Position numbers and translations under genes: made by a program. The notes under the pieces are model-generated. The model saw only the letters and a program-made list of their open reading frames with translations. It searched no databases and was not told the DNA's origin. From Diplonema papillatum (taxonomy: Eukaryota; Euglenozoa; Diplonemea; Diplonemida; Diplonemidae), in assembly GCA_030068145.1 (NCBI GenBank), contig JAPJBO010000041.1, positions 124,001 through 188,000 on the forward strand: a stretch of 64,000 nt of DNA. Direction: 5' to 3'. Of the stretch, positions 15,960-56,597 are shown piece after piece; position 1 is the first letter of the stretch; the number at the start of each line of letters is the position of its first letter.

Positions 15960-17560
15960 CTAAGTGAGTGTTGCATGCTAATGCAAAAACAGGGCACAAG
16001 CAAAGGGAAGGGACACTGCCGTGTTTTTGCGCCATCGATGTTGAGATTGGTGCAGTGAAGGGTCGACACCTCCTTGAGATCAACGACCTGTCGTTGTCCT
16101 TCATGGAGATGTTTCAGCAGATCATAAAAGACCGTCACCTCCGGACGCCTGCCGAGTATGATGATGATGTGGTGGTGTCGGCTAGGGCTGATAGCAGGAG
16201 TGTGTGGAGAGATGTTTCTCTTGGGGCTTGTCTGTGCAGGCCATGGACTCCATGCAGTACCGGGAGGTTCGGTACGTTGTGAAGCAAAAGTTCCCGTAGC
16301 TCGAACACCTGTCAACGCCTTCGACCTGCTGATGAAAAAGAGCCAAGCCCGCGTGAAGCCGCTGCAAGTGGGTGAAACGAAGTCGTGGATAGTGTTGTTC
16401 AACAGGCTAGTCCAGGAAGAATTCGACAGGGCCCTCCTGGTCGATGAAAAAGGGCATCCGTTCTATCAGGAAGTGGCCAAGACCCTTCTCAAACTTGATG
16501 GGCTCCCACTTTCTGTGCAGCTGTTGCAGTAGTATGAGGGCACCACAACAAGGTGAACTCAGCATCCACTGCACGAAACTGCAGGAAGTGAGAGATGTGG
16601 TGTGTACCCGTATCGTCACGCAGCAAGCGCAAAACCAACAGCGCACTGAGCAACGCAGTGCGGGAGTTCCATCCAGAAACCCTGTTTGCGACTGGGGTCC
16701 ATCGTGAAAGCGGAGGGGTCTTCTTCTTGGGGAGAGCTGGAAGGGCAATTCGCCGAGGCAATTCGAGCCGTTTTCACTGGACACCGTGCCCAGCCTCTCT
16801 GACGATCGCCGTGCTCGGTTCAAGCAGATCCAAGGGGTAAAGACGAGCTTCCCCTTCGGTGTCCACAAATACAACGCTGGGGGGCAAGCGCTTGGTATTC
16901 AAGCTGCCACCGAGCGACCGCCGCCTACAGGAGGATGTCGTCAAGGCGTTCAAGTCGTGCATCGGGACGGGGAAAAGGTTCCACACCCGGGCCATGAGGA
17001 TGAAATTCGTCGAGGTCTGGGGTGTTCCGCGTACCATCCTCAAGACGATGTACTACATGTTCGTGACTGGAGATGTGAACCCCCTGCGCACATCAACCGA
17101 AAGCCACCTGGCTGAACTCCTCACAACTGATTCACCCCAGTGAGGTTGCATTCCGAAGCTCGTCAAAAGAGTCCAAATACGACGGCTACTGGGACGCCAT
17201 GGGCCGCGTTCTTGAGAAGTGCGGTACTGTCGTGGACGAGAGGCGTCATGGAGAAGTTTCACGCCTCACGTTTGAGGTCCCCGCAAGCATCCGGCTTCTC
17301 ATGGAAGAAGTGCAGAAGCGGCTTCCGGCCGATGCCCACGTCCCGTCCGAAACGTGGGTACGATACCAATTCTGGCCGAGTACGCCGAACAACACGGTTG
17401 CTCCCAGGCAGTCGCAAGGCCCACGACTAGACGCCTACTACTGTCGGTGGCAGCAGCTCTACGCTGAAGGCTCACCTGGTCCCTCCGTACAACAAAAAGC
17501 CTGAGCACATGCAGACGACGGGCATTTCCCAGTGCAAAAAGTCGCCGAAGAATCAAAGTG
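15960..17560 (+). pseudogene. Broken ORF of unknown, probably transposon, origin
   Basis: Four plus-strand segments look coding but lie in shifting frames: 15968-16282 ('LSLSFMEMFQQIIKDRHLRT'), about 16280-16532 ('NAFDLLMKKSQARVKPLQVG'), 16859-17143 ('SDRRLQEDVVKAFKSCIGTG') and 17199-17504 ('PASIRLLMEEVQKRLPADAH', then 'VPSETWVRYQFWP'). The simplest reading is one protein gene with several frameshifts. I do not recognise the family; the VPSxxWVRxQFWP stretch recalls large repetitive protist proteins but is not diagnostic. An intron-rich host gene is less likely because the joins lack clean GT-AG pairs. Confidence 0.4.
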
Positions 17561-17639
17561 AGGGACGCGTACCCCTCCGGGCGAACCCACAGGCCAGGTG
17601 ACTTGCCAAACTATTTTTTTTAAAAAAAAACTGTTTTTT

Positions 17640-17825
17640 TTTTTGCGCGCGCGCGCGGAAAATTTTCAGGGGTCGGGGGACGCGGATCAAAAAATAAAAA
17701 TAGTCTGCCCTAAGTACATTTTCAGGGCAAAAAACAAATTTGTTAGGTTTGGTACCTCTAAGGGCATTTTTTGGTACCTCTAAGGAAATAAACGAATTGT
17801 TTGGTACCTCTGAGGAAGATCACCC
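17640..17825 (+). repeat. TTAGAGGTACC repeat family, reverse-orientation copy
   Basis: Starts with a (GC)n tract 'GCGCGCGCGCGGAAAATTTT' and continues 'CCCTAAGTACATTTTCAGGG' to 'GGTACCTCTAAGGAAATAAA'. Nearly the same 185 bp occurs at 63055-63240. Confidence 0.75.
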
Positions 17826-17830
17826 TAAGA

Positions 17831-18085
17831 TTTTACATAAGCGCCAGCTTGGAAGGAAATGCTCGACAAAAGCTGCCAGACAAAGAACCGAAGGGATCCC
17901 AAGTGCTGTCACTACCGAACGTGTTGAACGGACGTGAAATCATGCGGGTCTATCCCTACACGACAAGACACAGGTCAAAGTTGTTCTTACACTGAGGACT
18001 TCGACCTGTGTTTGTATTGTATTTGCCCCTCTACCTCTATATTTCCTCCCTTCCATTCGGAGTCAAAGCAGCTTCGTCGAGTATC
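17831..18085 (+). mobile_element. MITE family M1, copy 3
   Basis: Copy of about 255 bp with both ends (TTTTACATAAGCGCCAGC; GCTTCGTCGAGTAT), shortened in the middle near 17970-18010. It abuts the TTAGAGGTACC repeat. Confidence 0.75.
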
Positions 18086-19281
18086 TTGGCTAGAGGTACC
18101 CTGGATAGGGGTACCTATGGGTTTCCCAGAAAAGCGGGCAGCTCGCTGGAGAATCTCAACTACTCGGAAAATGTGTAGCTAATACCCTGTGTTTGCTTTC
18201 TGACCAATGCGTTCCACGTCTGAAGGGTCCTTGCGTTAAGTTCGCGCCTTCTGTGGGTATACAGACTTGATCACGACGATTTTGGAAACGAAGCTTACTC
18301 TTGAGATCCGGGGTTTTATAGTCTCCGGGTGACCTCCTGCCGGGCGCCTGCTCCGTTGCGGTGTTTTGGAAACTAGGTAACTTTGTGCTCAGCGGTCCCA
18401 CGAATCATGTTCCACGTCCTGTGACTCGTACTTTCAAACTTAATGCCATGAATCATGTTCTACCTCCTGTGATTCGTGCGACTTTTAACAATCTTGTCCT
18501 TTCACCCCCATCCTTCCTACAGCAGGACAGGTCCTGCTCTGTGGGCAACCAATGTTTTCCCTCTCAGGCTGGTAGAACTGGTCATCCTGTCCAGACGTGG
18601 GGCATGTCTGTCGGGCTGGTCTGGTCTGGTCCAGGCTGGTGGTACTGGTGTGGTCAAGCTGTCCAGCATGTGCTTTTTCATAAAAACCTGGTGTCGGTCA
18701 CACAAGCTAAAAACGAAGATACACGGATGCGCAACCGCATGTGTCTCAAAGTATGAAAAGGAATGAAAAAAACACACTGCAGGCCCTGCTCTAACAGCAC
18801 AAAAGGAACCCCCACCCCCCCCTTTCCCCCCCGCCTCACAAGTCAAACGGAGACTTGAAAAACCGACCGCTTACTACAAGAAACAGTTTAGAAACGGTCT
18901 AAAAAGGTCGACCACAAAAAGCCTCGAAAAGATCTATCAGCTAAATATGTCCCTTTAGCACACAACTACGTAATAGAAGACACAGATAGCAATCAGACTG
19001 CCGCCAAGGCAACAACTACCAAAACACTAGACCGATACGGGCTACATGGCAACCCCTGCTAAACATTGCACCTTAAAGAACTCAATGCTAAACATCCAAC
19101 GATTTAAAAGCTACAGTTTCTGTACTTTATTGGTGTCACGGGATAAGCCGGCAGCCGCTGCTTAACGGTAGCCGCTGCTTAGCGGCAAAGGAAGCACACC
19201 AAGAGAGCACAGAAAGAAACGACAAGAGGAGAAGAGAACCAGACGGAGAGAAAACACGTCAGAAAACCGGGCCCGACCGCA
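18086..19281. other. Upstream region of the LINE, no gene seen
   Basis: No convincing coding frame. It holds the left copy of a perfect 29-bp inverted repeat (18306-18334) and, just before ORF1, a short direct repeat 'AGCCGCTGCTTAACGGT' / 'AGCCGCTGCTTAGCGG' (about 19152-19186). Probably includes the 5' untranslated region and internal promoter of the LINE. Confidence 0.5.
18306..18334. repeat. 29-bp perfect inverted repeat, left copy
   Basis: This 29-mer contains GGGGTTTTATAGTCTCCGGG. Its exact reverse complement is at 26504-26532, 8.2 kb away, with the complete LINE between them. The right copy read on the plus strand contains CTATAAAACCCC, a TATA-like sequence. Confidence 0.9.
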
Positions 19282-21003
19282 ATGGAGGAGATACAGCAGT
19301 ATCTCGCAAAGGCACAGCTCCTCGCGGAGACAGCCGAAGACGAGGCGCAGTACTGCACTGTGTTTGGGATTGTCAAGATCCTACTGATCCTGTCAGAAAG
19401 GATGGGACGAAAACATCCCACGGTAAGGGCAGAGAAGGTGCCGAAGGAGGAAGCGAAAGCGGAAGTGAAGGCCGAACCGCGAAAGACGCAGGCCAACTGG
19501 AAGGCGGACGCACCGGCAGTGCGGCGAGAAGGCGCGTGGACGACGGTGCCGCCGAAAGGAGGCCCGAAGAGCGCAGAGGCGAAGCCGAAGCAGGAGATGA
19601 AGAGCGGCTGGCTGAAGGTCGCGACCGCCGGGAAGGAAGCGCGGCGAACGACGACTGCAGATTGTGGTAAGAAGCCCGATGGCGAGAAGAAGCCCGTTAG
19701 CAGAGGAAAACCTGCTCTCAGAGCGAAGGATTGGGAGCTACCGCTGATCGATGCGAAGCTGCTCCTCGACGAATCCGAGAAGAAGGCGAAGCCAGAAGGC
19801 GTAATCGAAGCAACGATGGGCGAAGGGAGGCGCGTGCTCCAGTACGCCGACGAGCTGACGCAACTGGAGACGGAAGGGGTACGTTTGGTGATCGTCACCC
19901 CGCGATCCATAGCCGAAGACTCGACGCGCGAGCTAGTGTTCCGGGAAGACGGGTCAGTGGAGTACGCGCACGTGACACTGCGCGGAGCCAAAACGGCGAA
20001 GCCATCTGGAGGACAGGTGACGCTGGATGGGGACGCCTCGGCAACACGCGTGCTCGTGTTCACGGCACTCCATCGCGAACTGACAGACGAGAAGGTCGAG
20101 ATTCTGCGGAGTGAGACGAAGGGGGCCGGGGCCACCGACACGCTGTGCGCGAGATCGGCAAAGGGGGCAGCCGTCACCATCGAGAGGCGACACCGTTGGC
20201 GCCACGCTAGGATGTCCGATCGTAGCACGTGCATGGTCCGGGTGCCGCAAGCACACGCAGCCAGCCTCCTCGGGGCAAGCGGACACGAAGGGCTGTTCTG
20301 GTCGGCTCCGAGGTTCGTAGAAGGTGGGGAGTCCCACAAAGTTCAATGGCTTGCAGAGGACGCGACCTTGGAAGAGGCCCTGGCTCTTACAGCCTTACCG
20401 GGGACACACGGTCTGGTGCCGGCGAGAGCACGATTGGGTGTACGTTACAGCGCGGAAGGGGAGCAGCTCGAGGCGTTGCGAGAGGCGGCAGGCATGCTGC
20501 TCGCTCCGGAGCTGCCGGACGAAGGAGTTGCGTACTTTGTCACGGGCGGCCGGAACGAGCACGCCGAAGACATCGTGCAGGCGCTCGTGCGCGCGGGCTG
20601 GGTCGGCAGGACGCGGAAGACGTTCTCGAAGAAAGGGAGGACGCGGATGGTCGTGACGGCGCAAAGCCCGCCCCCAGCGGAGGTGCTCAGGCGCGCCGGA
20701 CGGGACCCACTGCACATCCGCGAGCTCGCCCACGGTGACGAGAGAAGGGCGGAAGCCAAAATCTGGCACGGGAAGGTCCCCAGAGTAACCGTACCTGGAG
20801 AACCACAGGCCGACGAAGCGGTAAAAGAAGAGCACTGCCACGAATGGCAGGAAGCAGCGCGCAACAAGAGCGAAACTGTATGCTCGGTATGCGACACCAC
20901 CCGCCAGAAGGGAACGATGATGAGGGCGTGCGCATGCGAGTCGAAGATCTGCGCCCCTTGCTTCGCGGCGAGGAAGAAGGCGAAGCAGGACGAGGCGGTC
21001 TGA
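19282..21003 (+). CDS. LINE ORF1 protein
   Basis: 573 residues. The N-terminus (1-50) is helical ('EEIQQYLAKAQLLAETAEDE') and may oligomerise. Residues 55-150 are Lys/Ala/Glu-rich and basic. The central part has no family I recognise. The last ~70 residues hold a treble-clef-like Cys/His cluster: 'HCHEWQEAARNK', 'CSVCDTTRQKG', 'CACESKICAPC', which resembles a RING/PHD-type zinc site rather than the CCHC knuckles usual in ORF1 proteins. By analogy it should bind element RNA. It ends at UGA (21001-21003) followed by CUA; the same frame stays open into ORF2 with no other stop. Confidence 0.8.
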   Translation: MEEIQQYLAKAQLLAETAEDEAQYCTVFGIVKILLILSERMGRKHPTVRAEKVPKEEAKAEVKAEPRKTQANWKADAPAVRREGAWTTVPPKGGPKSAEAKPKQEMKSGWLKVATAGKEARRTTTADCGKKPDGEKKPVSRGKPALRAKDWELPLIDAKLLLDESEKKAKPEGVIEATMGEGRRVLQYADELTQLETEGVRLVIVTPRSIAEDSTRELVFREDGSVEYAHVTLRGAKTAKPSGGQVTLDGDASATRVLVFTALHRELTDEKVEILRSETKGAGATDTLCARSAKGAAVTIERRHRWRHARMSDRSTCMVRVPQAHAASLLGASGHEGLFWSAPRFVEGGESHKVQWLAEDATLEEALALTALPGTHGLVPARARLGVRYSAEGEQLEALREAAGMLLAPELPDEGVAYFVTGGRNEHAEDIVQALVRAGWVGRTRKTFSKKGRTRMVVTAQSPPPAEVLRRAGRDPLHIRELAHGDERRAEAKIWHGKVPRVTVPGEPQADEAVKEEHCHEWQEAARNKSETVCSVCDTTRQKGTMMRACACESKICAPCFAARKKAKQDEAV

Positions 21004-21006
21004 CTA
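21001..21006 (+). promoter_or_regulatory. Candidate stop-codon readthrough site UGA-CUA
   Basis: The ORF1 stop is TGA followed directly by CTA. UGA-CUA is a known leaky context (for example mammalian OPRL1, AQP4 and VEGFA readthrough and several plant viruses). All 35 codons from 21004 to the first ORF2 ATG at 21109 are sense codons in the same frame, so readthrough would yield an ORF1-ORF2 polyprotein. I could not identify a convincing downstream stem-loop by eye. Confidence 0.6.
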
Positions 21007-21108
21007 CGACGCCACCACGGTGAGACGACGAAGGCGGCACCGGCAGAGGCCTCCTCCCATCAACCCGAACGCGCCCTGTCGGCGAGCCTCGTACGACCAC
21101 GACAATCG

Positions 21109-24100
21109 ATGCCCTGGGCCTATTGCCGTACTCGGCAGGTCCGCCAGTTCTCCCGACCGACAACGCGCACGACGAGCCGACACAGACGATCCGGAGGACG
21201 ATACCACCGCCGACCCACGCCCTTCTGTCGAAGCCCGCCGGAGCAGGTCAGACGGACGAAGTTATCAGTTGCGGAGGCACGCCGAAAGCACCTGCTGCTA
21301 GGAGGGGACATCGAAGAGAATCCCGGCCCCCGATGCTGGAGCGTCGCCACACTCAACGTGTCCTCGCTCTTGCGGTACATCCCGGCAGTGAAAGGGGTGT
21401 GTACCGACGTCCTCTGCTGTCAGGAGGTGACACTCCTAGAGACGAGAAGGCCGGAAGCGGAGATGCATCTCGAAGACTGGAAGTGTCACTGGGGGAGTGA
21501 ACCGATGGGGAGGAGCTGTCGATCGTCCGGAGTCAGGTCCGAGACGAGCGCGAGGAACGGGGGAGTTTGCACCTTGGTCCAGAAGCCCGTGCCGGCGTTC
21601 TCTCCCACGGCGCTGCACCAGATGATTGGCAGTGCGTACACTGATGCCCGCTTTCTGCACACGGCGGTCGCCACGGGAACGGGCAGCACGTTCGTGCACG
21701 TGATCAACCTGTACTGCCCGTCAGGAAACGACAGGTCGGTAGTCGACGACAGGGAAGCATTGTTGGAGAGGGTCCTCTTCGCCGCAGCGGACAGCCTCGG
21801 CGACGTTCCAATCATAGTCGCCGGGGATCTTAACACCGACGAGGCGAGATCCCCGACACTCCGGAAGGCTCTGCGGAACGGGTGGTCCGACGCAGCGCGA
21901 CTACAAGAAGTCAGCACAGGGCAGGCCCCCGACGCCACCTTCGCCACCTGTAGCACCCCGGGCACGCGCATCGACCGCCTGATGATGAATCGGGTCGCGG
22001 CGCAAGCGTTCTCGAGCTGCACTACGACGATCGTGGACGTACCTGGACACCGACTCGTGACTGCCACTTTCGATCTCGAGGCGTTCGACCAGACGGTTTG
22101 GCGGTACCGGTTGCCGCGGCCGATTCAGGTCAGACCGCTCCAACAGCAATTGGCCACGGTGGAAGAAGACTCAGCGCGGGCACGTCAACTCCTAGAGCAG
22201 TCGAGGTTTGCCCAGGCAGTGGGGAACAGCGACGTCGACGAGGCGTGGCGAGAATGGTCTGCAACGGCGGAAAGGCACCTGCTGGACTTGTGCCAAGTTC
22301 AGACGTCAGAACGTCGGCGTTTCACAGGACGAGGTCGTCTGCTGGCACCAACGCGTGCGAGGGCGACAGCGAGAAGTTCCAGTGACGGCACAGGAGCAGC
22401 CTCGGGTGTTCAACTCCGACTGCGCAACACCATCCATCGCCTAGAGCAGCTACACCGGCACCTTACGAACCGAGGGGGACCACAGTCGACGCCGAGTCAG
22501 ATGCAGAACTGCTGGAAGAACTGTAGGAAGCTCGCGAGTGAGTGCGCAGCACTACGCGGAAAGCCGATGACGGCATGGGACGAATTGCCCAGTCTCCAGG
22601 AGTGCAGCAGTCTGTTGCAGGCAGTCCGGGAGAGGAACGGAGCGATCGGAAAGGCCAGCATGGAGGCTCGACGTGCAAAATACTTCACCGGAGCGACAAA
22701 GCGAGCGGACGAAAACAGGCGGAGTGTCGTAGCGTGGTGCCGACGGCAACACAGGCAGGAAGCGACCACGCTGGAAGGTGAGCGGACCACGGCAAACGCA
22801 GAGGAAATGGACGCAGTGCTTCAGGACGCATGGGATCCGGTCTTCCGCGCCTACAAGGACGGTCCCGAGCCGCCCTACACACCTTTTGCTGGCCGGTACC
22901 AGCGCTACATCGATGGACACCCTCAGGAAGTAGGCGAGATCACGGGGACAGAGCTACGCGCGCTGCTAACGAAGAAAGGCGTCAAGGGTGCTTGCGGGAT
23001 CGACGGCTGGAGGATGGCTGAGCTGAAGGCACTCCCCGACCTGTACCTTGAATCCCTGGCCACGCTGTTGAACCTGGTCGAGAGAACGGGGATCTGGCCG
23101 CAGGCAATGCGAACAGCTCTCGTGAGTATGATTCCGAAGGGCGACGACGGGCAACCGCTCAACATGCGACCGATAACGGTGACATCCTGCGTGTACCGCC
23201 TCTGGGCCTGCCGGCGTCTGAAGGATGTTGCGGTGTGGCAGGAGAGTTGGGTCGAGGAGGGTCAACACGGTTTCCGACCTGGCCACCGGGGAGAGGACCC
23301 GTTGTTTACAATGACGCTCGAGATCGAACGCGCCTTGCTGAGCGGCGAGCCACTGTGCGGGCTATCTCTGGATTTCTCGAAGTGCTTTGACCGCGTCCCG
23401 CGGGAAATCGCACTCCGCCTCATGCAGGACCTCGGGCTCCACTCCCGGATTCTGAAACCGCTGAAGTCCATCTACGACACCCTCGTCAGGCGGTTCAAGC
23501 TCCCCCTCGGGGTCGGAAAGGAGTTTCAGGTGACGAACGGCATTCTGCAAGGGTGCCCTATCTCGGTCATCCTGATCAACGCGCTGCTGTCAGTGTTGAT
23601 GAAGGCGGTAAAAGTCGAGGCACCAGGCGTGTCGACGCAGTCGTACGCAGACGATGCGAATTTGTTGGCGAAGCACTCCGAGGCAGATCTGCAACGGGGC
23701 GCGGACTTAGTCGATGAGTTCTGCGCGCTGACCGGCATGTCGCTGAACATGGAGAAGACGGTAACGTTCGCGACGGGGCTGGGCCGTAGGACGAAGATCT
23801 TCCGCAGCAGCACGGGCGAGCAGTTCGCACAGAAGGAATCGCTGAAGTGCCTGGGGGCTAAGGTGAGCACCTCACGCAGCGGCCGCGACCACTTTGACTC
23901 TTCCCGGTTTGAAGCAGCAGCAACCACAGCTCGGAACCTACGGCACGTCCCAATTCCGAGGCAGCAGAAAACCCTCATCGTTCAATCAGCCATCCTGCCC
24001 GCCGCTCTCGCGAGAATATCGTTCGCGCCCCCTACGACTGAAGCCGTGGAGAAGCTGGCGACAGCGTTAACGAGAGCGATCTGGGGGCCGAAGAATCCGA

Positions 24101-26247
24101 AGCGCTCCTCGGAAGTAGTCTTGGGAGTCCTCGAAAAAGCCCACTTGACGCACCCTGCGACGGCGACGGCGTACCGAATAACCGCGGATTTCTACAGCGC
24201 CTGTGGGAGACTGCCGCACCTGATGCCGCTGATGACGGAAGTCCGGCGCCTATACGGCGAACGAGTGACCGCAGCCCTTGGCCCGGTGGGAACCGCGGTA
24301 AGGCACGGCCTGCAACCCTGCGGCCACACGTGGAACGGCGGCCCGCCGTCGTCCGTCAACCTGGACGGAGCTGCACTCCGACCCCTGGCAATGTCCGCCT
24401 CCTCGCGAAATCACATCATCCGCGACAACCTGCGGAACCGACTGTGGAAGCGGTTGGAAACACGACGGCCAAGCTTCTCCGGCATCACCAACATCGCGAT
24501 CGAGTCCACCAACGCTCTATGGACAACGCGCCACTGTCCGCCCCAGAACGCGCTGCTGATCAGGGTTGCCCTCGCAGGTGGCGTGAACACCGCCGAATAC
24601 ACGTCGAGATTTCGCCAAGGCGGAAGCCCCGCCTGTACGTTGTGTGACTCGGGAGCATTGGAAGACGAGCACCACGTCTACTGGGATTGCACGGCCTTCG
24701 AGAACATACGCACGAAGCCCGAGTACGCGGGGATCGCACAGTCCGACAGGAGGCTCTGGCCGAGCTGCCTGCGGGAGCACGGAATCGTGACGCCGGCGAC
24801 ACGGGAATTTGCCGGGCCGGTACAAGCGCTGATGGCAGAGATCCTGGCGGAGCGGGCGCGCCGGGTCAGCGTTAGATGGCTAGAACGTAAGGCGGCGACC
24901 CCCTGGGAGCGCTGCGCGCAGATGCCAACGGCGAAACGCGAGTTCCCGTTCCGGCGCATCGCCCCGGCCTGGGCGTGGCTACGCTACTGGGACGAAGGGA
25001 CATTCCTGGCAGCGATCGACTGGCTCTCGGGCCTCGAATGGTCATCGGATGGCGACATGGCAGCGGTAGAGGCAGCTATCGACTTCGAGCTGTTCTCGGG
25101 CCTCGACATCAAGGCACCTAGCAAGGCGGCCAAGACGCATCGGGAGAAGGCCAACGGGATGCGCTGCATGTTGAGCGCAATCAACAAGCTGGCCGTGCAA
25201 CAACAACTCGGCAAGTGCCTCCCTGGCGACTTCAAGTCGAAAACGACAGCCTTGTCGTTCATAGGCCTGAGCAGCGTACCCGGCTTCCAGCCCCGGCCCC
25301 GCCACCGCATGCCCGAAACCGGGCCGACCATCATGCAGCAGGTGAAAACCGGCTACGGCACAGCGCCGGCGTACCCGCCCGAGCGGACGGACAGAGCGCG
25401 GCGATGGGTAATCCCCAGAGCGCCACTGGCCAACCCGGATCCCCTGCACCTCCCACACGCAGTGCCGGAGGCGACGAAGAATGCCCCCAAGTGCGCTACC
25501 CATCACAAAGGGAAGTGCGCAGTCTGTCGCGCACTCGGACACCACCACGGCCCTACGGTGGAGGCATGTTGCCGACACCACCACGCCGACAACGACGGCT
25601 TACCTCCGGCCGTCTGCGACCGGCACCGCATGACGAGATGCGTGGAGTGCAACACGCCAACAGCGTGCTGCAAGGCCGGCCACCATGACTGCCGCGAACA
25701 CGCCCGCGGTCCGTGTGACGACTGCCGCGGCTTACCGACGCTAGCGGAACGGCGGCCGTCAGCCTGCTGCAAAAAGGGCCACCACGTGCCAGCGCCCCCG
25801 AAGCCAGCCCCCGCTAAGCCGAAGCCAACAACGCCGCGGAAGAAGGGCCGACAGAAGCCGACGACACCACCGCGCATGAAGAGGACGCGTCAAGCGTCCC
25901 CAAAGGCGGCCAAGATGGCGAAAAAGCACGCTCCGACCGAGCCGGCCCGAGCGACACCACCAAGGAAGGGGCAGAAAAGAGCCCGACTCCCGACACCACC
26001 GAATGACCCGGCGGGAAAACCCGGAAAAAAGCACGCGGCGCGAAAGCGCAACATTTCGAGAATGGAGCTGGATATCACCAGCCCTGCCACCTCGACTGCA
26101 TCCTCATCCATGTCAGGATCGCCCCCTCGAGCGACTGCTTCGGCAGGACAGCCGGCGCGAAAGCGCAACAAACGAAGAATGGAGCTGGATATCACCAGCC
26201 TATTATCACCGTCCTCGAGATCGTCCTCGGACGACGTATTCAAATAA
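21109..26247 (+). CDS. LINE ORF2: 2A - endonuclease - reverse transcriptase
   Basis: 1,712 residues. Order: basic leader (1-66); 2A motif (67-74, DIEENPGP); APE-type endonuclease from about 76 (TLNVSSL, CCQEVTLLE, VAGDLNTD, IDRLMMN, GHRLVTATF supply the Asn, Glu, Asp-Asn, Asp and His positions); RT with 'LSLDFSKCFDRVP' (motif A), 'NGILQGCPIS' (motif B) and 'SYADDANLLA' (catalytic YADD at 23644-23655, residue 846); a thumb; a C-x2-C-x11-H-H-x4-C knuckle (24634-24690); a Cys/His-rich block (about 1461-1560, many CC and HH pairs); then a Pro/Lys-rich end with a duplicated 'RRMELDITS'-type motif (about 26062 and 26179). The tail is longer than in most LINEs. Start chosen as first ATG after the ORF1 stop, but translation may enter by readthrough. 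Confidence 0.9.
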   Translation: MPWAYCRTRQVRQFSRPTTRTTSRHRRSGGRYHRRPTPFCRSPPEQVRRTKLSVAEARRKHLLLGGDIEENPGPRCWSVATLNVSSLLRYIPAVKGVCTDVLCCQEVTLLETRRPEAEMHLEDWKCHWGSEPMGRSCRSSGVRSETSARNGGVCTLVQKPVPAFSPTALHQMIGSAYTDARFLHTAVATGTGSTFVHVINLYCPSGNDRSVVDDREALLERVLFAAADSLGDVPIIVAGDLNTDEARSPTLRKALRNGWSDAARLQEVSTGQAPDATFATCSTPGTRIDRLMMNRVAAQAFSSCTTTIVDVPGHRLVTATFDLEAFDQTVWRYRLPRPIQVRPLQQQLATVEEDSARARQLLEQSRFAQAVGNSDVDEAWREWSATAERHLLDLCQVQTSERRRFTGRGRLLAPTRARATARSSSDGTGAASGVQLRLRNTIHRLEQLHRHLTNRGGPQSTPSQMQNCWKNCRKLASECAALRGKPMTAWDELPSLQECSSLLQAVRERNGAIGKASMEARRAKYFTGATKRADENRRSVVAWCRRQHRQEATTLEGERTTANAEEMDAVLQDAWDPVFRAYKDGPEPPYTPFAGRYQRYIDGHPQEVGEITGTELRALLTKKGVKGACGIDGWRMAELKALPDLYLESLATLLNLVERTGIWPQAMRTALVSMIPKGDDGQPLNMRPITVTSCVYRLWACRRLKDVAVWQESWVEEGQHGFRPGHRGEDPLFTMTLEIERALLSGEPLCGLSLDFSKCFDRVPREIALRLMQDLGLHSRILKPLKSIYDTLVRRFKLPLGVGKEFQVTNGILQGCPISVILINALLSVLMKAVKVEAPGVSTQSYADDANLLAKHSEADLQRGADLVDEFCALTGMSLNMEKTVTFATGLGRRTKIFRSSTGEQFAQKESLKCLGAKVSTSRSGRDHFDSSRFEAAATTARNLRHVPIPRQQKTLIVQSAILPAALARISFAPPTTEAVEKLATALTRAIWGPKNPKRSSEVVLGVLEKAHLTHPATATAYRITADFYSACGRLPHLMPLMTEVRRLYGERVTAALGPVGTAVRHGLQPCGHTWNGGPPSSVNLDGAALRPLAMSASSRNHIIRDNLRNRLWKRLETRRPSFSGITNIAIESTNALWTTRHCPPQNALLIRVALAGGVNTAEYTSRFRQGGSPACTLCDSGALEDEHHVYWDCTAFENIRTKPEYAGIAQSDRRLWPSCLREHGIVTPATREFAGPVQALMAEILAERARRVSVRWLERKAATPWERCAQMPTAKREFPFRRIAPAWAWLRYWDEGTFLAAIDWLSGLEWSSDGDMAAVEAAIDFELFSGLDIKAPSKAAKTHREKANGMRCMLSAINKLAVQQQLGKCLPGDFKSKTTALSFIGLSSVPGFQPRPRHRMPETGPTIMQQVKTGYGTAPAYPPERTDRARRWVIPRAPLANPDPLHLPHAVPEATKNAPKCATHHKGKCAVCRALGHHHGPTVEACCRHHHADNDGLPPAVCDRHRMTRCVECNTPTACCKAGHHDCREHARGPCDDCRGLPTLAERRPSACCKKGHHVPAPPKPAPAKPKPTTPRKKGRQKPTTPPRMKRTRQASPKAAKMAKKHAPTEPARATPPRKGQKRARLPTPPNDPAGKPGKKHAARKRNISRMELDITSPATSTASSSMSGSPPRATASAGQPARKRNKRRMELDITSLLSPSSRSSSDDVFK
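21307..21330 (+). other. 2A ribosome-skipping motif in ORF2
   Basis: Codons read D-I-E-E-N-P-G-P, a full match to the 2A consensus D-(V/I)-E-x-N-P-G-P, preceded by the usual hydrophobic LLLGG. In 2A peptides the ribosome fails to join Gly (21325-21327) to Pro (21328-21330), releasing the upstream product and continuing. Here that frees the endonuclease/RT with an N-terminal Pro, two residues before its first conserved strand. Confidence 0.9.
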
Positions 26248-26503
26248 CCCTAGCCTATGACAAATGCAAGCTTACCCCTGTGGTACCTGCATTTCAAGTT
26301 CACACTGCTAAACATGTATGCACGTGGGGGACCCGAGGTCGCTTTCCTCGCGAACGTGAACTCGGTGTCGGTCACAAGAGCCATGGACTTGGCAAAGCAC
26401 ATAGGAAAAAAGAGCGCGCGCTAAAATAAGTCGAATAGTCGGCAATAGGCAGCAAAGATACACACACAAACATACTATACCTTAAAGGAACCTTTGCGAC
26501 TAC

Positions 26504-26532
26504 GGTCACCCGGAGACTATAAAACCCCGGAT
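26504..26532. repeat. 29-bp perfect inverted repeat, right copy
   Basis: Exact reverse complement of 18306-18334; includes GAGACTATAAAACCCC. It lies 257 bp past the ORF2 stop. Confidence 0.9.
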
Positions 26533-27119
26533 CCCTAAGCGAATATGCACTCTACAAAACTCACACAGAATCGTGAAGCTCGTTGAAACGCGCTCGGGCA
26601 AGTAAGGTACTCGCCACGTATCTGTCCCGTTGAACCATTTCTTTTTTTTTTGGAGCCAAGGTACCAGGGAAAGCCTGCTACACGGGAGCCAAGCTTCACG
26701 TGTTCGGCGGTACTGCAGAGCCACGGGCCTACGGGTCAAGTGGCTACTGATTTCCCAAACTAAAGCATCAAGGCTTGGCGCACCTTAGGGCTTGGCGCTC
26801 GCGCTGAACACAAGCTCGTCGAGACGGTCAGCCGCAGGGCAGAGCGGACGGAGTTGTGGCACTGTGCTGCCTCCGACTCAAGCTTTGCAAGCTGTGGTTG
26901 AGCGTCACGTTCCTGGACCAGGAGCGGCCTTTTTCTTCTTCTTCTTTTCTTGGAGCCCAAGGATTCACCCCTGGAAGTTGATTCTAATCGAAATGTCCTC
27001 GGTGCGGCGCGCAAGTAGCGAAGCACAAGAATCCCAGGGCGATTCGAAACGATAAACAAACCCAGGGCACCCAGAAGGGCGGCCTCCCTTTACCCCGCTT
27101 GACGTTTCACGAGTCCTGT

Positions 27120-27390
27120 TCAGTACCGACAATCTTGCGGGTTGCCCTTCAATGCAGTGCGCAGGCTAAAACGACGTAGGCAGCGTGTTTTGGCGGTTGA
27201 TCAGAGTTCCTCATCTGAAAATGACACAGGGTAAATACAAGCGGGAAACCGAACAACCGGTAAAGACCGGCGCCCAGCGAGACTAGAGGCAACTGGGCCC
27301 AAAAGGCACCTTCCCCGCGTAGATTGCCACCGATTTAATGAGCGGCACGCACGAACAAAACGAAGCGCCTGTCTTTTTCTCTTGTACCGC
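27120..27390 (+). repeat. Dispersed repeat R3, copy 1
   Basis: Segment from 'ACAATCTTGCGGGTTGCCC' through 'GACGTAGGCAGCGTGTTTTG' to 'ACGAAGCGCCTGTC'. It matches about 37600-37760 and, for its right part, 44095-44205 (just before the glycosyltransferase gene). It lies close to the 5' side of three host genes, so it could be a promoter-carrying repeat. Confidence 0.6.
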
Positions 27391-28030
27391 CGAGTGGGGG
27401 AGGGAGAAGATAAACTCAGGGAGAATATTTGCGCCAGACAAACGCTGCCCGACATCTTCCTCAGTCCTGATGGCTGCTCAAGGCACGAAAACTGTGTTCG
27501 TTTCTCGGCAACACAAAGAAGAGCGAAACGTCACACAGAGAGAAGAGAGGATGAAAACGTCGCTTCTTTTTTTCCCGCGTAAAAAGGGTGCATCCCGCGT
27601 TTCCGCTCTTCTTCCACTGTACCACCGACGCCAGGTCTGTACACGCCGGACACTCTATATGAGACGATGCCAAAACCTTCCCCATCCCCTTCGCACTAAT
27701 AGAACACTTTTTCGAGACAATTCCATGTGTTCCAAAAATGTATGCCTAAGCAATGAGCGAACCAACACCAAACTGAAGATCATGTCTCTGTCACAGTTTG
27801 GGAAGACCACAGTTGTGTGTACACGTCACTGCCCAGCTCCAGTGCTGTGCAGTGCGCGCTACCGCCTGCACTGAAGAACCGGTGAATCCGAATTCAACAC
27901 CGAAGAAAAATAGCACTGAAAAATGTGCAAACCGTTGAGTTAGCTCCTGTAAACAACACAAGTCAGAAGAGAACCAACGAACAAGCAACATCGACAGAGA
28001 AAAGAACCTTCTAAAAAACGGAAAGCCGGC

Positions 28031-29475: not shown

Positions 29476-31149
29476 ATGAAGCGGTTGCGGAAATGCGCTG
29501 TAGCGCAGCCGAGGGCGCGGCAGACGCGACGGGAGAGTGACTATGTGATCGTGGGGGGAGGCACGGCGGGGTGCGTGCTGGCGAACCGGCTGTCGAAGGA
29601 CGGGACCAAGAAGGTGACGCTGCTCGAGGCCGGCGGCGACGACAGCTGGGTCTGGCTGAAGATCCCGATCGGGTACCTGTTCGCAATGATGAACAAGCGG
29701 GTCGACTGGTGCTTCGCCACCACGCCGCAGGGGCACCTGAACGGGAGGCGGATCGCGATGCCGCGCGGCAAGGTCCTCGGCGGCTGCTCTTCGATCAACG
29801 GGACCATATACATGCGCGGGCAGCGCCGCGACTACGATGAGTGGGCGGTCGCCAACCCCGGCTGGTCTTGGGACGACGTTTTGCCCTACTTCAAAGGCAA
29901 CATGGACTACTACCGGGGAGCAGACGCCCTGCACGGGGCCGGCGGTGAGTGGGCCGTCAGCGCGCCGCGCGTCCACTGGGAGGTCCTCGACGTCTTCCAG
30001 CGCGCGGCCGCGGAGAACGGCATCCCCGTCACGGACCACTTCAACACCAGCGACGAGCAAGCCTGCGGGTACTTCCAAGTGACGCACCGACGCGGGGTGA
30101 GATGCTCAGCGAGCACAGCGTTTTTGCACCCGATTCTGCACCGGAGGAACCTCAACGTCGTCAAGCACGCGCTGACTCGCCGGTTGATCATCGAAGGCGG
30201 CAGGTGCCTCGGAGTCGAATACGAGGACGCGAAGAGCAAAAACGTGCGGGAAATCTTCGGGAAGGAGGTCATCCTTGCGGCCGGGTCGATTAACTCGCCG
30301 CACCTGCTGCAGCTTTCGGGTGTCGGCCCGCGGGCTTTGCTCGAAAAACACGGCGTCGCCGTCGTGAGAGACGCTGCGGGCGTCGGGGGCAACCTGCATG
30401 ACCACCTGCAGATTCGGCCGGCGTTCCGCTTGAAGGACGGGACCACCACGCTGAACCAACTGACGAAGAGCTACCTGCAGATGGTCTGGATGGGCGTTCA
30501 GTACGCGGCCAGTCGGTCGGGTCCCCTCGCAATGGCGCCGTCGCAGTTCGGCGCGGTCGCAAGGAGCAGTCCCGGGGAGGCCACTCCCGATCTCGAGTTT
30601 CACGTGCAGCCGTTGAGCTGCACGCGGCTCGAGCTGGGCGACCTGGATGACTTCCCCGGCGTGACGCTTTCCGTCTGCAACCTGCGGCCGACGTCGCGCG
30701 GCACGGTGGCCCTCTCCGGCAACTCAGTGCACTCACCCCCCACCATCGACCCCAACTACCTCTCGACTCCGGACGACCAATTGAAAGCAGTCCTCGGCAT
30801 CCGGCTGGCCCGCACCCTCATCTCTTCCCCGGCGTTCGCGCACCTTGCGCCCGTCGAAGTCCGCCCCGGTCCCGCCGAGCAGACCGACCAGGAGCTAGTG
30901 GCCGCCGCCGCGGACATCGCGTCGTCGATCTTCCACCCGGTGGGCACGTGCAAGATGGGGCCCGCGTCCGATCCGGGCGCGGTGGTGGACAGCCGGCTGC
31001 GCGTGCACAGCGTCGAGAGGCTGCGGGTGGTCGACTGCTCCGTGATGCCGAGCATCCCTTCGGGCAACACTTGCTCCCCCGTCGTCATGCTCGCGGAAAA
31101 GGCCGCAGACATGATCAAGGAGGACACGCTAAAGTTGGCCCACGCCTGA
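29476..31149 (+). CDS. GMC oxidoreductase, choline-dehydrogenase type
   Basis: 557 residues, one exon, usual family length. GMC flavoproteins oxidise alcohols with FAD; this subtype includes choline and glucose dehydrogenases. Seen: FAD motif GGGTAG (27-32) ending VTLLEAGG; signature 1 'GGCSSINGTIYMRGQRRDYD' (from ~102); signature 2 'AAGSINSPHLLQLSG' (from ~268); catalytic 'HPVGTCKMG' (H487) and 'PSGNTCSP' (N531). The 44-residue His-Asn spacing equals that of choline oxidase (H466/N510), which favours a choline-type enzyme and hence glycine-betaine synthesis, an inference. The basic N-terminus ([19 protein letters not shown]) could be a mitochondrial presequence. The start is the ATG shared by all array units. 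The 580-residue ORF on the opposite strand is a shadow. Confidence 0.93.
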   Translation: MKRLRKCAVAQPRARQTRRESDYVIVGGGTAGCVLANRLSKDGTKKVTLLEAGGDDSWVWLKIPIGYLFAMMNKRVDWCFATTPQGHLNGRRIAMPRGKVLGGCSSINGTIYMRGQRRDYDEWAVANPGWSWDDVLPYFKGNMDYYRGADALHGAGGEWAVSAPRVHWEVLDVFQRAAAENGIPVTDHFNTSDEQACGYFQVTHRRGVRCSASTAFLHPILHRRNLNVVKHALTRRLIIEGGRCLGVEYEDAKSKNVREIFGKEVILAAGSINSPHLLQLSGVGPRALLEKHGVAVVRDAAGVGGNLHDHLQIRPAFRLKDGTTTLNQLTKSYLQMVWMGVQYAASRSGPLAMAPSQFGAVARSSPGEATPDLEFHVQPLSCTRLELGDLDDFPGVTLSVCNLRPTSRGTVALSGNSVHSPPTIDPNYLSTPDDQLKAVLGIRLARTLISSPAFAHLAPVEVRPGPAEQTDQELVAAAADIASSIFHPVGTCKMGPASDPGAVVDSRLRVHSVERLRVVDCSVMPSIPSGNTCSPVVMLAEKAADMIKEDTLKLAHA

Positions 31150-43626: not shown

Positions 43627-44361
43627 ATTATCCAACAACTGAGCCACGAAACGCACGCGCACACAGGGCATCACAAGAAAACGGTTCCACAACGCACAGA
43701 CACACGCACCCACACACAGCAGGCTTGCTTGAAGTTGGAGTCCCTACGAACGGAGCAGACTTCTCGCCAAAGTGAGGTTGGAAGGGTTGAGCGAGAAGAT
43801 GGCAAAATGCAGCCGCTTGGCCCCCCTTTTTCGCGTCTTTCTCCCTCTCTCTCACTATCTCTCCGCCTGCCTTTCAATTCCACCTTTTCTATGCTGCCGG
43901 ACCGGTCTTCTAGCCACTCTTACAACGGTTGTACCACTACAATTCTCAGGTTTGCTTCGCATTCGCGCACAACAAATCGTACTGTGCTACAAGGCAGTGA
44001 GAACACTTCGCAGTTCAAGACTCTCTGTGTCCCCAGCAATGGAGCTCCCTCGTTCGCTCGTTCAAGGGGAGGCAGAACGCCACTGAGGTCAGAATTCTTC
44101 ACTTGCAAATGAACCAGACCGCAAACAAGTGGGAACCCGATCAACCGGCACGCAAAAACAAGACGAAGCGCCTGTCCTTTTTTTGTTAGTACAAGCTCAA
44201 CTGCTTGCAGAAAACGCTTATTTGCACGTCTCGTGCGTATTGTGTACGTCAACCTAAACCCGCCTTCCCCTCTCGTAGGAAAGAGTATCACACACGAACA
44301 CGCACACACACCACACACGCGCACACGCGTACGTGCGAAAAGAAGCTCCAAAAAAGCGACG
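43627..44361. other. Upstream region of the glycosyltransferase gene
   Basis: No gene seen. 44095-44205 matches the right part of dispersed repeat R3. A CA-rich tract 'ACACGAACACGCACACACAC' lies 40-80 bp before the start codon. Confidence 0.5.
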
Positions 44362-45525
44362 ATGAAGCAGCAGCGGCGGTCTGCGCGGAGCCCCATGGTG
44401 TTTGCCGGATTTTCCGTGGTCGCGTGTCTCATGATCCTGCACCTGATGGCCCACAGCGGCGACGGCCCGTCGAATCCGGCCCAGCTGGCCGCGAAGCCGA
44501 AGACTTTGTCTTCCTCCGCCCAGGATCTGTTCGACAAGGTCACGAACCAGCAGGCGGCGAAGAAGCCCCGGACCGCCGTGGCAGTGTACATCCACCAGGG
44601 CTCGTACGACCGCGGGTTCCACGCGAACGCCGAAGGAATGCTTGACAACATCGCCGTCATCACCTCACAGGTCCACCGGTTTGCGCCCGTCATGAAGCAC
44701 GACGTTCAGCTCATCGCACTGCTTACCAACACCAGCAAGACCTTGGCCCCTCTCCTCACAAAACTAGGCTGGCATGTCCGTATAGTCGAACTGCCCATGC
44801 AGCCGTGGGAGATCCGCAACCCGCAGATTGCGAAAGAAGTCTGGTCGGATGGTGCCATCGGGATCTGGGAGATGCTGAAGCTCGAATTCTGGCGGCCGTC
44901 TGTCGTCGACCTGGACGTGGACTCCATTCTGATCATCGACACGGACATCCACCTGCGGAAGCCGTTTGACTCCGTCTTCGAGCCTCCAAACATGCCTGCG
45001 AACGCGACCCTGGGTTACACGCACGGGGCCTGGACCATCGAGAAGGTAAACGGCGGTTACCTCGTGGTCAGACCGGACGAGCGGTCCGAACGGGACTACC
45101 ACAACATCTACGACATCTTCCGGGAAGGGGACTTCCGCTCGGGGACGGGGTGGAAAGGGAAGGTCGGCTGGACGTACGGCGGGAGGACCATCCAGGGGCT
45201 GCTGCCGTATTACTACTTGTACGGAGAGGGGAAGGGCCGGGGGAACTACATGTCGCGGTGCCTCTACAACAACATGGTGAACTCGGACGAGTGCAAGCCG
45301 ACGAAGCCGGAGGCTGTCATCAGCAACCATTTCACGGGGGGGTGCATGAAGCCGTGGGCGTGCGCCCGGGCGGCGCACCCGCTTTGCAAGGCGTTGACGG
45401 ACCAGTGGTGGGAGGACGTCGCTGTCGCTGAGAAGTGGCTGGGGCTCCCGCACAGGCGGAGGTGCCCTGGCGGCTCCTACGAGGCGATGGGCCTGCGCAC
45501 GACGCAGTGGAAGCTGCCGGGCTGA
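44362..45525 (+). CDS. Type II membrane glycosyltransferase, GT8/glycogenin-like
   Basis: 387 residues, single exon. A short basic head (KQQRRSARS) is followed by a membrane anchor (about 12-30, 'MVFAGFSVVACLMILHLMAH') and a stem, typical of Golgi enzymes. The catalytic core starts near residue 70. 'DVDSILIIDTDIHLRKPFDS' carries the D-x-D metal/nucleotide-sugar motif (193-195). Downstream 'TIEKVNGGYLVVRPDERSER' resembles the GFNxGVLVI segment of GT8 enzymes. The C-terminus is Cys- and Trp-rich ('ISNHFTGGCMKPWAC'). Family GT8 transfers Glc, GlcNAc, Gal or GalA from UDP/GDP-sugars; the donor cannot be told. The first ATG of the frame gives the anchor; the upstream extension to 44233 starts at GTG and is rejected. 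Confidence 0.8.
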   Translation: MKQQRRSARSPMVFAGFSVVACLMILHLMAHSGDGPSNPAQLAAKPKTLSSSAQDLFDKVTNQQAAKKPRTAVAVYIHQGSYDRGFHANAEGMLDNIAVITSQVHRFAPVMKHDVQLIALLTNTSKTLAPLLTKLGWHVRIVELPMQPWEIRNPQIAKEVWSDGAIGIWEMLKLEFWRPSVVDLDVDSILIIDTDIHLRKPFDSVFEPPNMPANATLGYTHGAWTIEKVNGGYLVVRPDERSERDYHNIYDIFREGDFRSGTGWKGKVGWTYGGRTIQGLLPYYYLYGEGKGRGNYMSRCLYNNMVNSDECKPTKPEAVISNHFTGGCMKPWACARAAHPLCKALTDQWWEDVAVAEKWLGLPHRRRCPGGSYEAMGLRTTQWKLPG

Positions 45526-46949: not shown

Positions 46950-47335
46950 GCATGGGCGCAAACACCTTCAGCGACTTCACGAAATACGTCTTCGAAACAT
47001 CCTCTCACCCGTACCTCTCCCGCCAGTCCTTGTTTGTCGGCAACTGCGCGTACACAGCTTCCCCTTGCATCCGCTTCACGAGGTTGACAGACCCTGGCAG
47101 CGTGTCATTTCTTGATGTCGGCAATCCGGCGATTATGCCTGGCAGCGTCTGTCTCACAAAGTTCAGCACGGCATGGTTGATGATGGCATATAGCACCGTC
47201 GGCGACTTCACACACGCGGGGGCGACGCACAATGTCGCCCGCGAGCACGTCTGAGCACGCCTCGCTCGTGCACCCCATGTAGTTGTACCGCTGCAATGCG
47301 CAGTAGTACTGCGTCCCCAAGGCATCGTTTACAGC
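46950..47335 (-). other. Possible coding remnant, unknown
   Basis: Minus-strand frames 47320-47105 and 47325-47005 look protein-like but lie in different frames ('GTQYYCALQRYNYMGCTSEA', then 'KSPTVLYAIINHAVLNFVRQ'). A single frameshift would join them. No family recognised and no start is evident. Confidence 0.25.
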
Positions 47336-48249
47336 CGTGGACTACGACGGTATCTGATCATCTTGGATCCCCACGCTCTCGTTCTTGATTAATGAAGACA
47401 TTCTTGTCGAATGCTTTCGCAGAAGTTCGTCTTCCTACGATCTAAGAATCTCACCTCTGACGTAGTAGGAGTACGCAGTACGCAGTCCTTATTGATCCCG
47501 CGAACGAGGCTTTAGACGAAACTCAAAAGAGAACCGCTAAGAGCTTCGTTTTGATTATTCGACTTCGACCTAAATCTATGTGAAACCACGCATGAGTTCA
47601 AACGTACGATGGGGTCGCCCCTCGAGCAGGGCTTACGCAGCTCTTTTGCCTTGGAGCTGAATACCTACTGAAAATCAGTGCGTAGGGTCAGGCAAAAAAG
47701 AAATAGAGCATAGGGGGCTCACCTGCCAGTGTTGCATGTCTTTGCCCCTGCCCCTCCTCTCCGGCCCCAACCCTCCAGTGTCGCGGTGGGAAGCAACAGC
47801 AGGATCTGTCGCTACTGCGGTTGATTCCCCAGATGAATCTTCAGAAAAGAGAGTACGTGCTGATAACGTACTGATTTCAGCACTTGTACACGTACTAGTT
47901 CAGCACGTGTACAAAAAGAAACTAAGAAAAATAACGTGCTGAAATCAGTACGTTCAGCATGCTGAACGTAAGGCCTGCTCTCGAGATAGTCATGATGTGT
48001 AAGCGAACGGCTCTCCCGGGAGGTCACTCCACTCCACGCCGAGCCAACTCTTGCCCCATGGCTGCCCCCCATGAGTAGGAAGCGGTTGGAGACAAAGGAT
48101 CTGGATATGGATTAGGAAGTCGCCGTTCCCCGAAGCTAGTCGTTGCCCGATAAATCCGATGTGCCCTCAAAACCAGCACCAATACCAACGACCCTCACTT
48201 CCCTTTTTTTTTTTGACAGAATAACACCGCCGTCTTTTTTAGCGTTTCT
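47336..48249. other. Intergenic, no gene seen
   Basis: Contains a perfect 19-bp inverted pair AACGTACTGATTTCAGCAC (about 47873-47891 and 47934-47952 on the opposite strand), a possible 80-bp hairpin. Otherwise nothing recognisable. Confidence 0.5.

Positions 48250-56554: not shown

Positions 56555-56597
<43 letters not shown>

What the first reader, a model, noticed from the sequence alone, without database searches (positions are those of the whole stretch)
21001..21330. LINE that may combine UGA-CUA stop readthrough with a 2A ribosome-skipping peptide
ORF1 and ORF2 are in one frame, separated by a single TGA followed by CTA, with no other stop in the 35 codons before the first ORF2 ATG. UGA-CUA is an established leaky context. 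The product would be a polyprotein in which the 2A motif DIEENPGP (21307-21330) then frees the endonuclease/RT. Together these would make both proteins from one start, with RT dosage set by readthrough and release set by 2A. 2A in non-LTR elements is known; I do not know of one described together with a UGA-CUA readthrough junction.
Basis: partly seen in the sequence, partly recalled or inferred. Interest (0 to 1): 0.92.

Follow-up and report, generated by a model that had tools for sequence, protein, structure and literature searches.

The report
LINE with readthrough stop and 2A
A jumping gene in an unnamed eukaryote, like related ones in the same genome, appears to make its reverse transcriptase by letting some ribosomes run through a leaky stop codon and then splitting the new chain with a self-separating 2A peptide, and in some relatives the stretch between the two encodes a predicted repair-type enzyme.

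Summary
At 21001 one TGA-CTA separates ORF1 (573 aa) from an in-frame ORF2 with a canonical 2A motif (21307-21330), then endonuclease and RT. It is a young non-LTR retrotransposon (about 19096-26308, target duplication TAAACAT). Near-identical copies prove little; related families in the genome are informative. A, E and a B1/B2/C group (53-69% endonuclease identity between the three) share one layout: ORF1 zinc-finger-like motif, UGA-CU(A/C/G), in-frame extension of 101-379 codons, 2A, EN-RT. All 41 loci in which the ORF1 end could be read have TGA there, and 40 have CTN next. In B2 the extension evolves as protein and encodes an AlkB-like dioxygenase whose iron-binding HxD precedes the first in-frame ATG (codon 221), so AUG reinitiation would not make it. 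UGA readthrough plus StopGo, a protease-free 'gag-pol', is the best-supported mechanism (about 0.75). For family A alone, reinitiation at ATG 21109 is not excluded, and nothing was measured. The conserved signal is UGA-CU, not the exact hexamer. My open-access searches listed no paper recognisable as describing this combination, or AlkB in a LINE. New variant of a known kind.

The parts
19089..19095 (+). 5' target-site duplication TAAACAT
   Evidence: identical 7-mer on both sides of the element
19096..26308 (+). non-LTR retrotransposon, family A
   Evidence: ends inferred from the target duplication and from where copies stop aligning
19282..21003 (+). ORF1, 573 aa, C-terminal Cys/His zinc-finger-like motif directly before the stop
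   Evidence: no Pfam, PHROGs or PDB match; H518 H520 C534 C537 C550 C552 C557 C560 invariant in five aligned ORF1s, some partial
21001..21006 (+). leaky-stop candidate UGA-CUA
   Evidence: TGA in 41 of 41 loci in which the ORF1 end could be read, CTN next in 40
21004..21306 (+). in-frame readthrough extension up to the 2A core, 101 codons
   Evidence: open in frame; 154-379 codons in relatives
21109..21111 (+). only ATG between stop and 2A, in frame; alternative ORF2 start
21307..21330 (+). 2A / StopGo motif DIEENPGP, break expected between G and P
21328..26247 (+). ORF2 body: endonuclease, reverse transcriptase, C-terminal Cys/His-rich region
   Evidence: Pfam Exo_endo_phos 2.4e-10, RVT_1 8.4e-25, zf-RVT 9e-4 but below its cut-off; PDB LINE-1 ORF2p 3.5e-21
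26309..26315 (+). 3' target-site duplication TAAACAT

Best explanation
A non-LTR retrotransposon that makes its proteins in two dosages from one start. Most ribosomes stop at UGA and yield ORF1p. A minority read through UGA-CU(N) and continue in frame through an extension to the 2A. StopGo then ends an ORF1p-extension-2A protein and a free EN-RT protein begins with proline. In families B1, B2 and C the extension contains an AlkB-like dioxygenase, so the same leak would set its dose. Shown: frame, stop, context, 2A motif, protein-level selection on the B/C extension. Inferred: readthrough, StopGo activity, dosage, enzyme function.
For: Same layout in A, B1, B2, C and E. Junction types A, B2/C, E (with the recombinants) and B1 have unlike flanks but all keep TGA-CT. 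B2: 63 of 63 genome places with matching flanks read TGACTA although six bases were free, but these copies are near-identical. B2 extension: first in-frame ATG at codon 221 in 3 of 3 standard copies and 263 in 3 of 3 recombinant ones, yet codons 100-221 show dN/dS 0.32 against C and 0.16 against B1 and third-position excess (p 0.036 and 1e-5). The AlkB HxD (codons 200-202) lies before that ATG. UGA is a normal stop here: the window GMC oxidoreductase gene, whose C-terminal domain is complete, ends in TGA, and neither ORF1 nor ORF2 contains another.
Against: No expression data. Only A and B2 carry the best-characterised CUA. The window has CUAC; changing CUAG to CUAC cut OPRL1 readthrough by more than half (PMC9841425, passages). 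No consistent RNA structure: z 0.60, -2.53, -0.62, -0.81, -1.92 for five junctions. In A, C and B1 the first ATG after the stop is in frame. The A extension shows no clear codon-position signal against E. B2 against recombinant B2 has 4 nonsynonymous and 0 synonymous differences in codons 100-221, too few to inform. B1, B2 and C are 88-97% identical in the endonuclease, so there are about three independent lineages, not five.
Confidence: 0.75

Rival explanations
1. Termination then reinitiation: ribosomes stop at UGA 21001, resume at AUG 21109, and the 2A then trims a leader off EN-RT.
For: In A the only ATG between stop and 2A is in frame, 105 nt after the stop codon; the first ATG is also in frame in the C and B1 representatives. 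Stop-restart coupling in SART1 and a proposed termination-reinitiation in LINE-1 are described in PMC5972666 (passages).
Against: B2: the first ATG after the stop is out of frame, and the first in-frame one (codon 221) would cut off the conserved AlkB HxD. E: the first two ATGs are out of frame. The position of the first in-frame ATG differs between families (36, 221 or 263, 17 or 207, 101, 32). Nothing in this model requires ORF1 and ORF2 to share a frame in each family.
Confidence: 0.15
2. ORF2 is made from its own transcript or by internal or non-AUG initiation; the shared frame is left over from an ancestral fusion.
For: Cannot be excluded without RNA data.
Against: A leftover stop without function would not be expected to keep TGA-CT in lineages only 53-69% identical in the endonuclease. 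Splicing out of the stop is unlikely because copies pass through RNA and would lose an intron (inference).
Confidence: 0.07
3. The TGA is a defect in decayed copies of a once-continuous polyprotein.
For: One copy alone would look like this.
Against: TGA is in 41 of 41 loci read, including 6 of 24 A-type loci in which ORF1 (573 codons) and at least 1747 codons after the TGA are open.
Confidence: 0.03

Closest known systems
APE-type non-LTR retrotransposons with 2A (L1Tc; elements of Odon et al. 2013)
   Same: Non-LTR element with endonuclease and RT and a D(V/I)ExNPGP motif in frame with its proteins. Known here only from citations and short mentions in PMC4981915, PMC5972666, PMC11512398 and PMC12846837 (passages); the two main papers were not held.
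   Different: Here the 2A lies downstream of an in-frame UGA that ends a separate ORF1, so on the favoured reading it acts only on readthrough products.
Gammaretroviral gag-pol (Moloney MuLV)
   Same: gag and pol in one frame, pol made by stop-codon readthrough (PMC5009743, passages).
   Different: UAG there, UGA-CU here; a protease processes the product there (recalled), 2A would separate it here.
Cardiovirus StopGo with nearby frameshift
   Same: Two recoding events combined, StopGo release next to a dosage-setting event (PMC5009743, passages).
   Different: There the frameshift diverts ribosomes after StopGo; here readthrough would admit them before it.
Human UGA-CUA readthrough genes (LDHB, OPRL1, AQP4)
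   Same: Same hexamer in A and B2 (PMC4359377, PMC9841425, passages).
   Different: Cellular genes with CUAG in these cases; here CUA, CUG or CUC by family.
Orchid Ty3/Gypsy elements with AlkB domain
   Same: Retroelement that gained an AlkB-like dioxygenase (PMC9289625, passages).
   Different: LTR element with a separate ORF; here a LINE extension between stop and 2A, closest PDB sequence ALKBH8.

Membership tests
APE-type non-LTR retrotransposon | AP-type endonuclease followed by RT in one ORF | tested here: met
   Pfam Exo_endo_phos and RVT_1; PDB LINE-1 ORF2p best
APE-type non-LTR retrotransposon | No LTRs, target-site duplication, dispersed copies some 5'-truncated | tested here: met
   No long terminal repeats in 17500-27500; TSD TAAACAT; 27 genome matches; L025-L027 5'-truncated, but with identical upstream flanks, so perhaps one insertion
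APE-type non-LTR retrotransposon | Placement in a named clade by RT tree | not tested
   No reference RT set was at hand
2A / StopGo element | D(V/I)ExNPGP motif in frame between two coding stretches | tested here: met
   motif as given in PMC4981915 (passages)
2A / StopGo element | Two separate products in translation | not testable with these tools
   needs in vitro translation
Programmed stop-codon readthrough | In-frame coding region after the stop under protein-level selection | tested here: met
   Met for B2 against B1 and C; inconclusive for A itself
Programmed stop-codon readthrough | Conserved leaky stop context UGA-CUA | tested here: inconclusive
   UGA-CU kept in the families read, third base A, C or G
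Programmed stop-codon readthrough | Measured extended product | not testable with these tools
   needs reporter or profiling
AlkB-type 2OG-Fe(II) dioxygenase (relatives B1, B2, C) | Family profile match and HxD...H iron ligands | tested here: met
   PF13532 2.1e-12 for B2 only; HxD and distal H aligned with ALKBH8; same motifs found in C and B1
AlkB-type 2OG-Fe(II) dioxygenase (window family A) | Domain present between stop and 2A | tested here: not met
   A extension is 101 codons; its translation lacks the motif

The most novel reading that the evidence does not exclude
A lineage of LINEs has evolved a protease-free gag-pol strategy: UGA-CU readthrough sets the dose and 2A separates the products. 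In part of the lineage the readthrough module carries an AlkB-type demethylase, fused behind ORF1p, that could strip methyl marks from the element's own transcript.
Probability: 0.5. Interest if true: 0.88.

Novelty: new variant of a known kind. Interest (0 to 1): 0.78.

Why it matters
How LINEs with two ORFs set the ratio of ORF1p to RT is an old question (recalled), with reinitiation a usual answer (PMC5972666, passages). Here several families in one genome point to a retrovirus-like answer: same frame, leaky stop, then separation by 2A without a protease. Short reporters can test it. The AlkB module would be a LINE-borne dioxygenase delivered only in readthrough amounts, which would link recoding with possible evasion of RNA marks.

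Tried and rejected
Reassigned UGA: rejected. The GMC oxidoreductase gene at 29476-31149 ends in TGA just after a complete C-terminal domain, and ORF1/ORF2 contain no other TGA. A second window ORF, 44233-45525, also ends in TGA but has no Pfam match and is not relied on. Stimulatory RNA structure as a shared signal: not supported (E itself not folded, only the near-identical recombinant). Single-sequence fold of ORF1: mean pLDDT 40.4, not used further. Relatives in viral contigs: none. Pfam, PHROGs and PDB for ORF1: nothing.

Rows left out of the junction count: of 26 loci examined for non-A copies, ten gave no junction by walking back from the 2A (L028, L031, L037, L040, L043, L045, L049, L051, L055, L057: truncated, interrupted or decayed). 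L055 was then found to carry TGA-CTG by its ORF1 end; its extension has in-frame stops. L033 and L035 (families D and F) have a 2A but no recognisable ORF1 upstream and were not counted. The 41 are 24 A-type (window, L009-L031) and 17 others. L025-L027 retain only the last 17 ORF1 codons, and L039, L041, L042 only three, so for these three the junction rests and on likeness of the extension to E (for L039 and L041). Five A-type loci lack an intact 2A: L022, L024, L028, L029, L031. One further 2A variant (C1193) could not be fetched.
Full report
What is there. The window lies in an unnamed 271-Mb genome. About 19096-26308 is a non-LTR retrotransposon flanked by a 7-bp target duplication TAAACAT. 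ORF1 (19282-21003) encodes 573 aa with no Pfam, PHROGs or PDB match. It ends in a Cys/His motif that is invariant in five aligned ORF1s, some partial. ORF2 carries an AP-type endonuclease, an RT and a weak zf-RVT match below its cut-off; the nearest solved structures by sequence are LINE-1 ORF2p.

Copies of the same family. A 501-base probe gave 27 matches, 95-100% identical but for one at 74%. I fetched 23 stretches. In the 24 A-type loci (window included) all have the TGA; 23 have TGA-CTA, while the decayed 74-75% relative L029 has TGA-TTG. The 2A is intact in 19 of 24, the TGA-to-2A stretch is open and in frame in 17 of 24, and in 6 of 24 both ORF1 (573 codons) and at least 1747 codons after the TGA are open. 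As most copies are nearly identical, this shows only that the TGA is not a private defect of the window copy.

Relatives. A 2A-motif pattern gave 360 hits against 0 for its reversal (about 100 places listed). Sorting by 2A DNA gave families A, B1, B2, C, E and a different kind (D, F). I fetched 26 further stretches. The 17 non-A loci in which the ORF1 end could be read all have TGA followed by CTN: CTA in three B2, CTG in C and B1, CTC in E and in three recombinant B2. Endonuclease identity is 69% between A and E, 53-56% between A and B1/B2/C, 58-60% between E and B1/B2/C, and 88-97% within B1/B2/C, so there are about three diverged lineages. Four junction types (A; B2 and C; E and the recombinants; B1) differ in the bases around TGA-CT; B2 and C resemble each other after the stop. 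Sense codons from TGA to 2A are 101 (A), 154 (E), 297 or 324 (C), 334 (B1), 337 or 379 (B2) in the loci walked back from the 2A; L055 (B1) has the junction but stops in its extension. Open frames of that length arose in 12% (A), 4.4% (E) and 0-0.12% (the rest) of simulated sequences. With six bases left free, 63 of 63 B2 places read TGACTA; for B1 5 of 45 places were shown, all TGACTG, and for C (38) and E (21) none were shown.

Evidence for translation through the stop. In B2 the first in-frame ATG is codon 221 (263 in recombinants; 3 of 3 each), and the first ATG in any frame after the stop is out of frame. Yet codons 100-221 evolve as protein: dN/dS 0.32 against C and 0.16 against B1, with differences by codon position 8/6/17 and 7/10/32. 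Over the whole extension the ratios are 0.48 and 0.42, and B2 against recombinant B2 is too close to inform. The B2 extension matches the AlkB-type 2OG-Fe(II) dioxygenase family (PF13532, 2.1e-12) and ALKBH8 (1.8e-6). The iron-binding HxD sits at codons 200-202, before the first in-frame ATG, so a protein begun there would lack it. This is the strongest argument that ribosomes enter the frame from ORF1. UGA is an ordinary stop for at least one window gene, a GMC oxidoreductase.

What speaks against it. In A, C and B1 the first ATG after the stop is in frame, so reinitiation is possible there. The A extension shows no clear codon-position signal against E: 20/17/25 in the last 45 aligned codons, 31/26/32 in the first 59. 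RNA folds after the stop are not consistently strong. The best-described human motif is UGA-CUA, highest with CUAG (PMC4359377, PMC9841425; passages), whereas the window has CUAC and other families CUG or CUC. No translation was measured.

Mechanism. Most ribosomes would make ORF1p. A minority would read UGA and carry on to the 2A, releasing ORF1p-extension and a free EN-RT. This works like a gammaretroviral gag-pol readthrough with a 2A in place of a protease. In B1, B2 and C the readthrough module would also deliver an AlkB-like enzyme; that it acts on RNA is inference.

Literature. 2A in non-LTR elements is known (citations and short mentions in PMC4981915, PMC5972666, PMC11512398, PMC12846837; passages). 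StopGo beside frameshifting is known in cardioviruses, and readthrough in retroviruses (PMC5009743, passages). Searches (all hits listed; 12 of 18 listed) showed, by title and start of abstract, no paper I could recognise as describing readthrough plus 2A in a LINE. Searches (15 of 15 listed; 12 of 138; 12 of 44) showed none with AlkB in a LINE; an AlkB domain in orchid Ty3/Gypsy elements is published (PMC9289625, passages). The library is open-access only and key papers on 2A in LINEs were not held, so priority is not established.

Verdict. A real feature whose interpretation is strengthened by relatives. The conserved signal is UGA-CU rather than the exact hexamer. I file it as a new variant of a known kind.

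Noticed in passing
L036:1003-2034 (minus strand): AlkB-like 2OG-Fe(II) dioxygenase encoded between the ORF1 stop and the 2A of LINE family B2; the same catalytic motifs are in B1 and C.
   Followed up: partly
L033, L035: Two further element kinds (families D, F) with 2A near the start of a reading frame and no recognisable ORF1 upstream; L035 shows two 2A-like motifs close together.
   Followed up: no
L041 and L034: B2-type element L041 carries the E-type junction and the first part of the E extension (only three ORF1 codons were fetched): apparent recombination between families that keeps the frame.
   Followed up: partly
L009:1-8318 and other copies: An A copy follows the 3' end of another head to tail in L009; 3' flanks of copies often begin TTAAC, TCAAC or TAAAC, which suggests a preferred target recreated by insertion.
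   Followed up: partly
window 47272-47733 (minus) and 56505-56594 (plus): Partial small- and large-subunit rRNA matches in Rfam; cause not examined.
   Followed up: no
window 18305-18334 and 26504-26533: Perfect 30-bp inverted repeat on either side of, but outside, the LINE; possibly ends of another element that the LINE entered.
   Followed up: no
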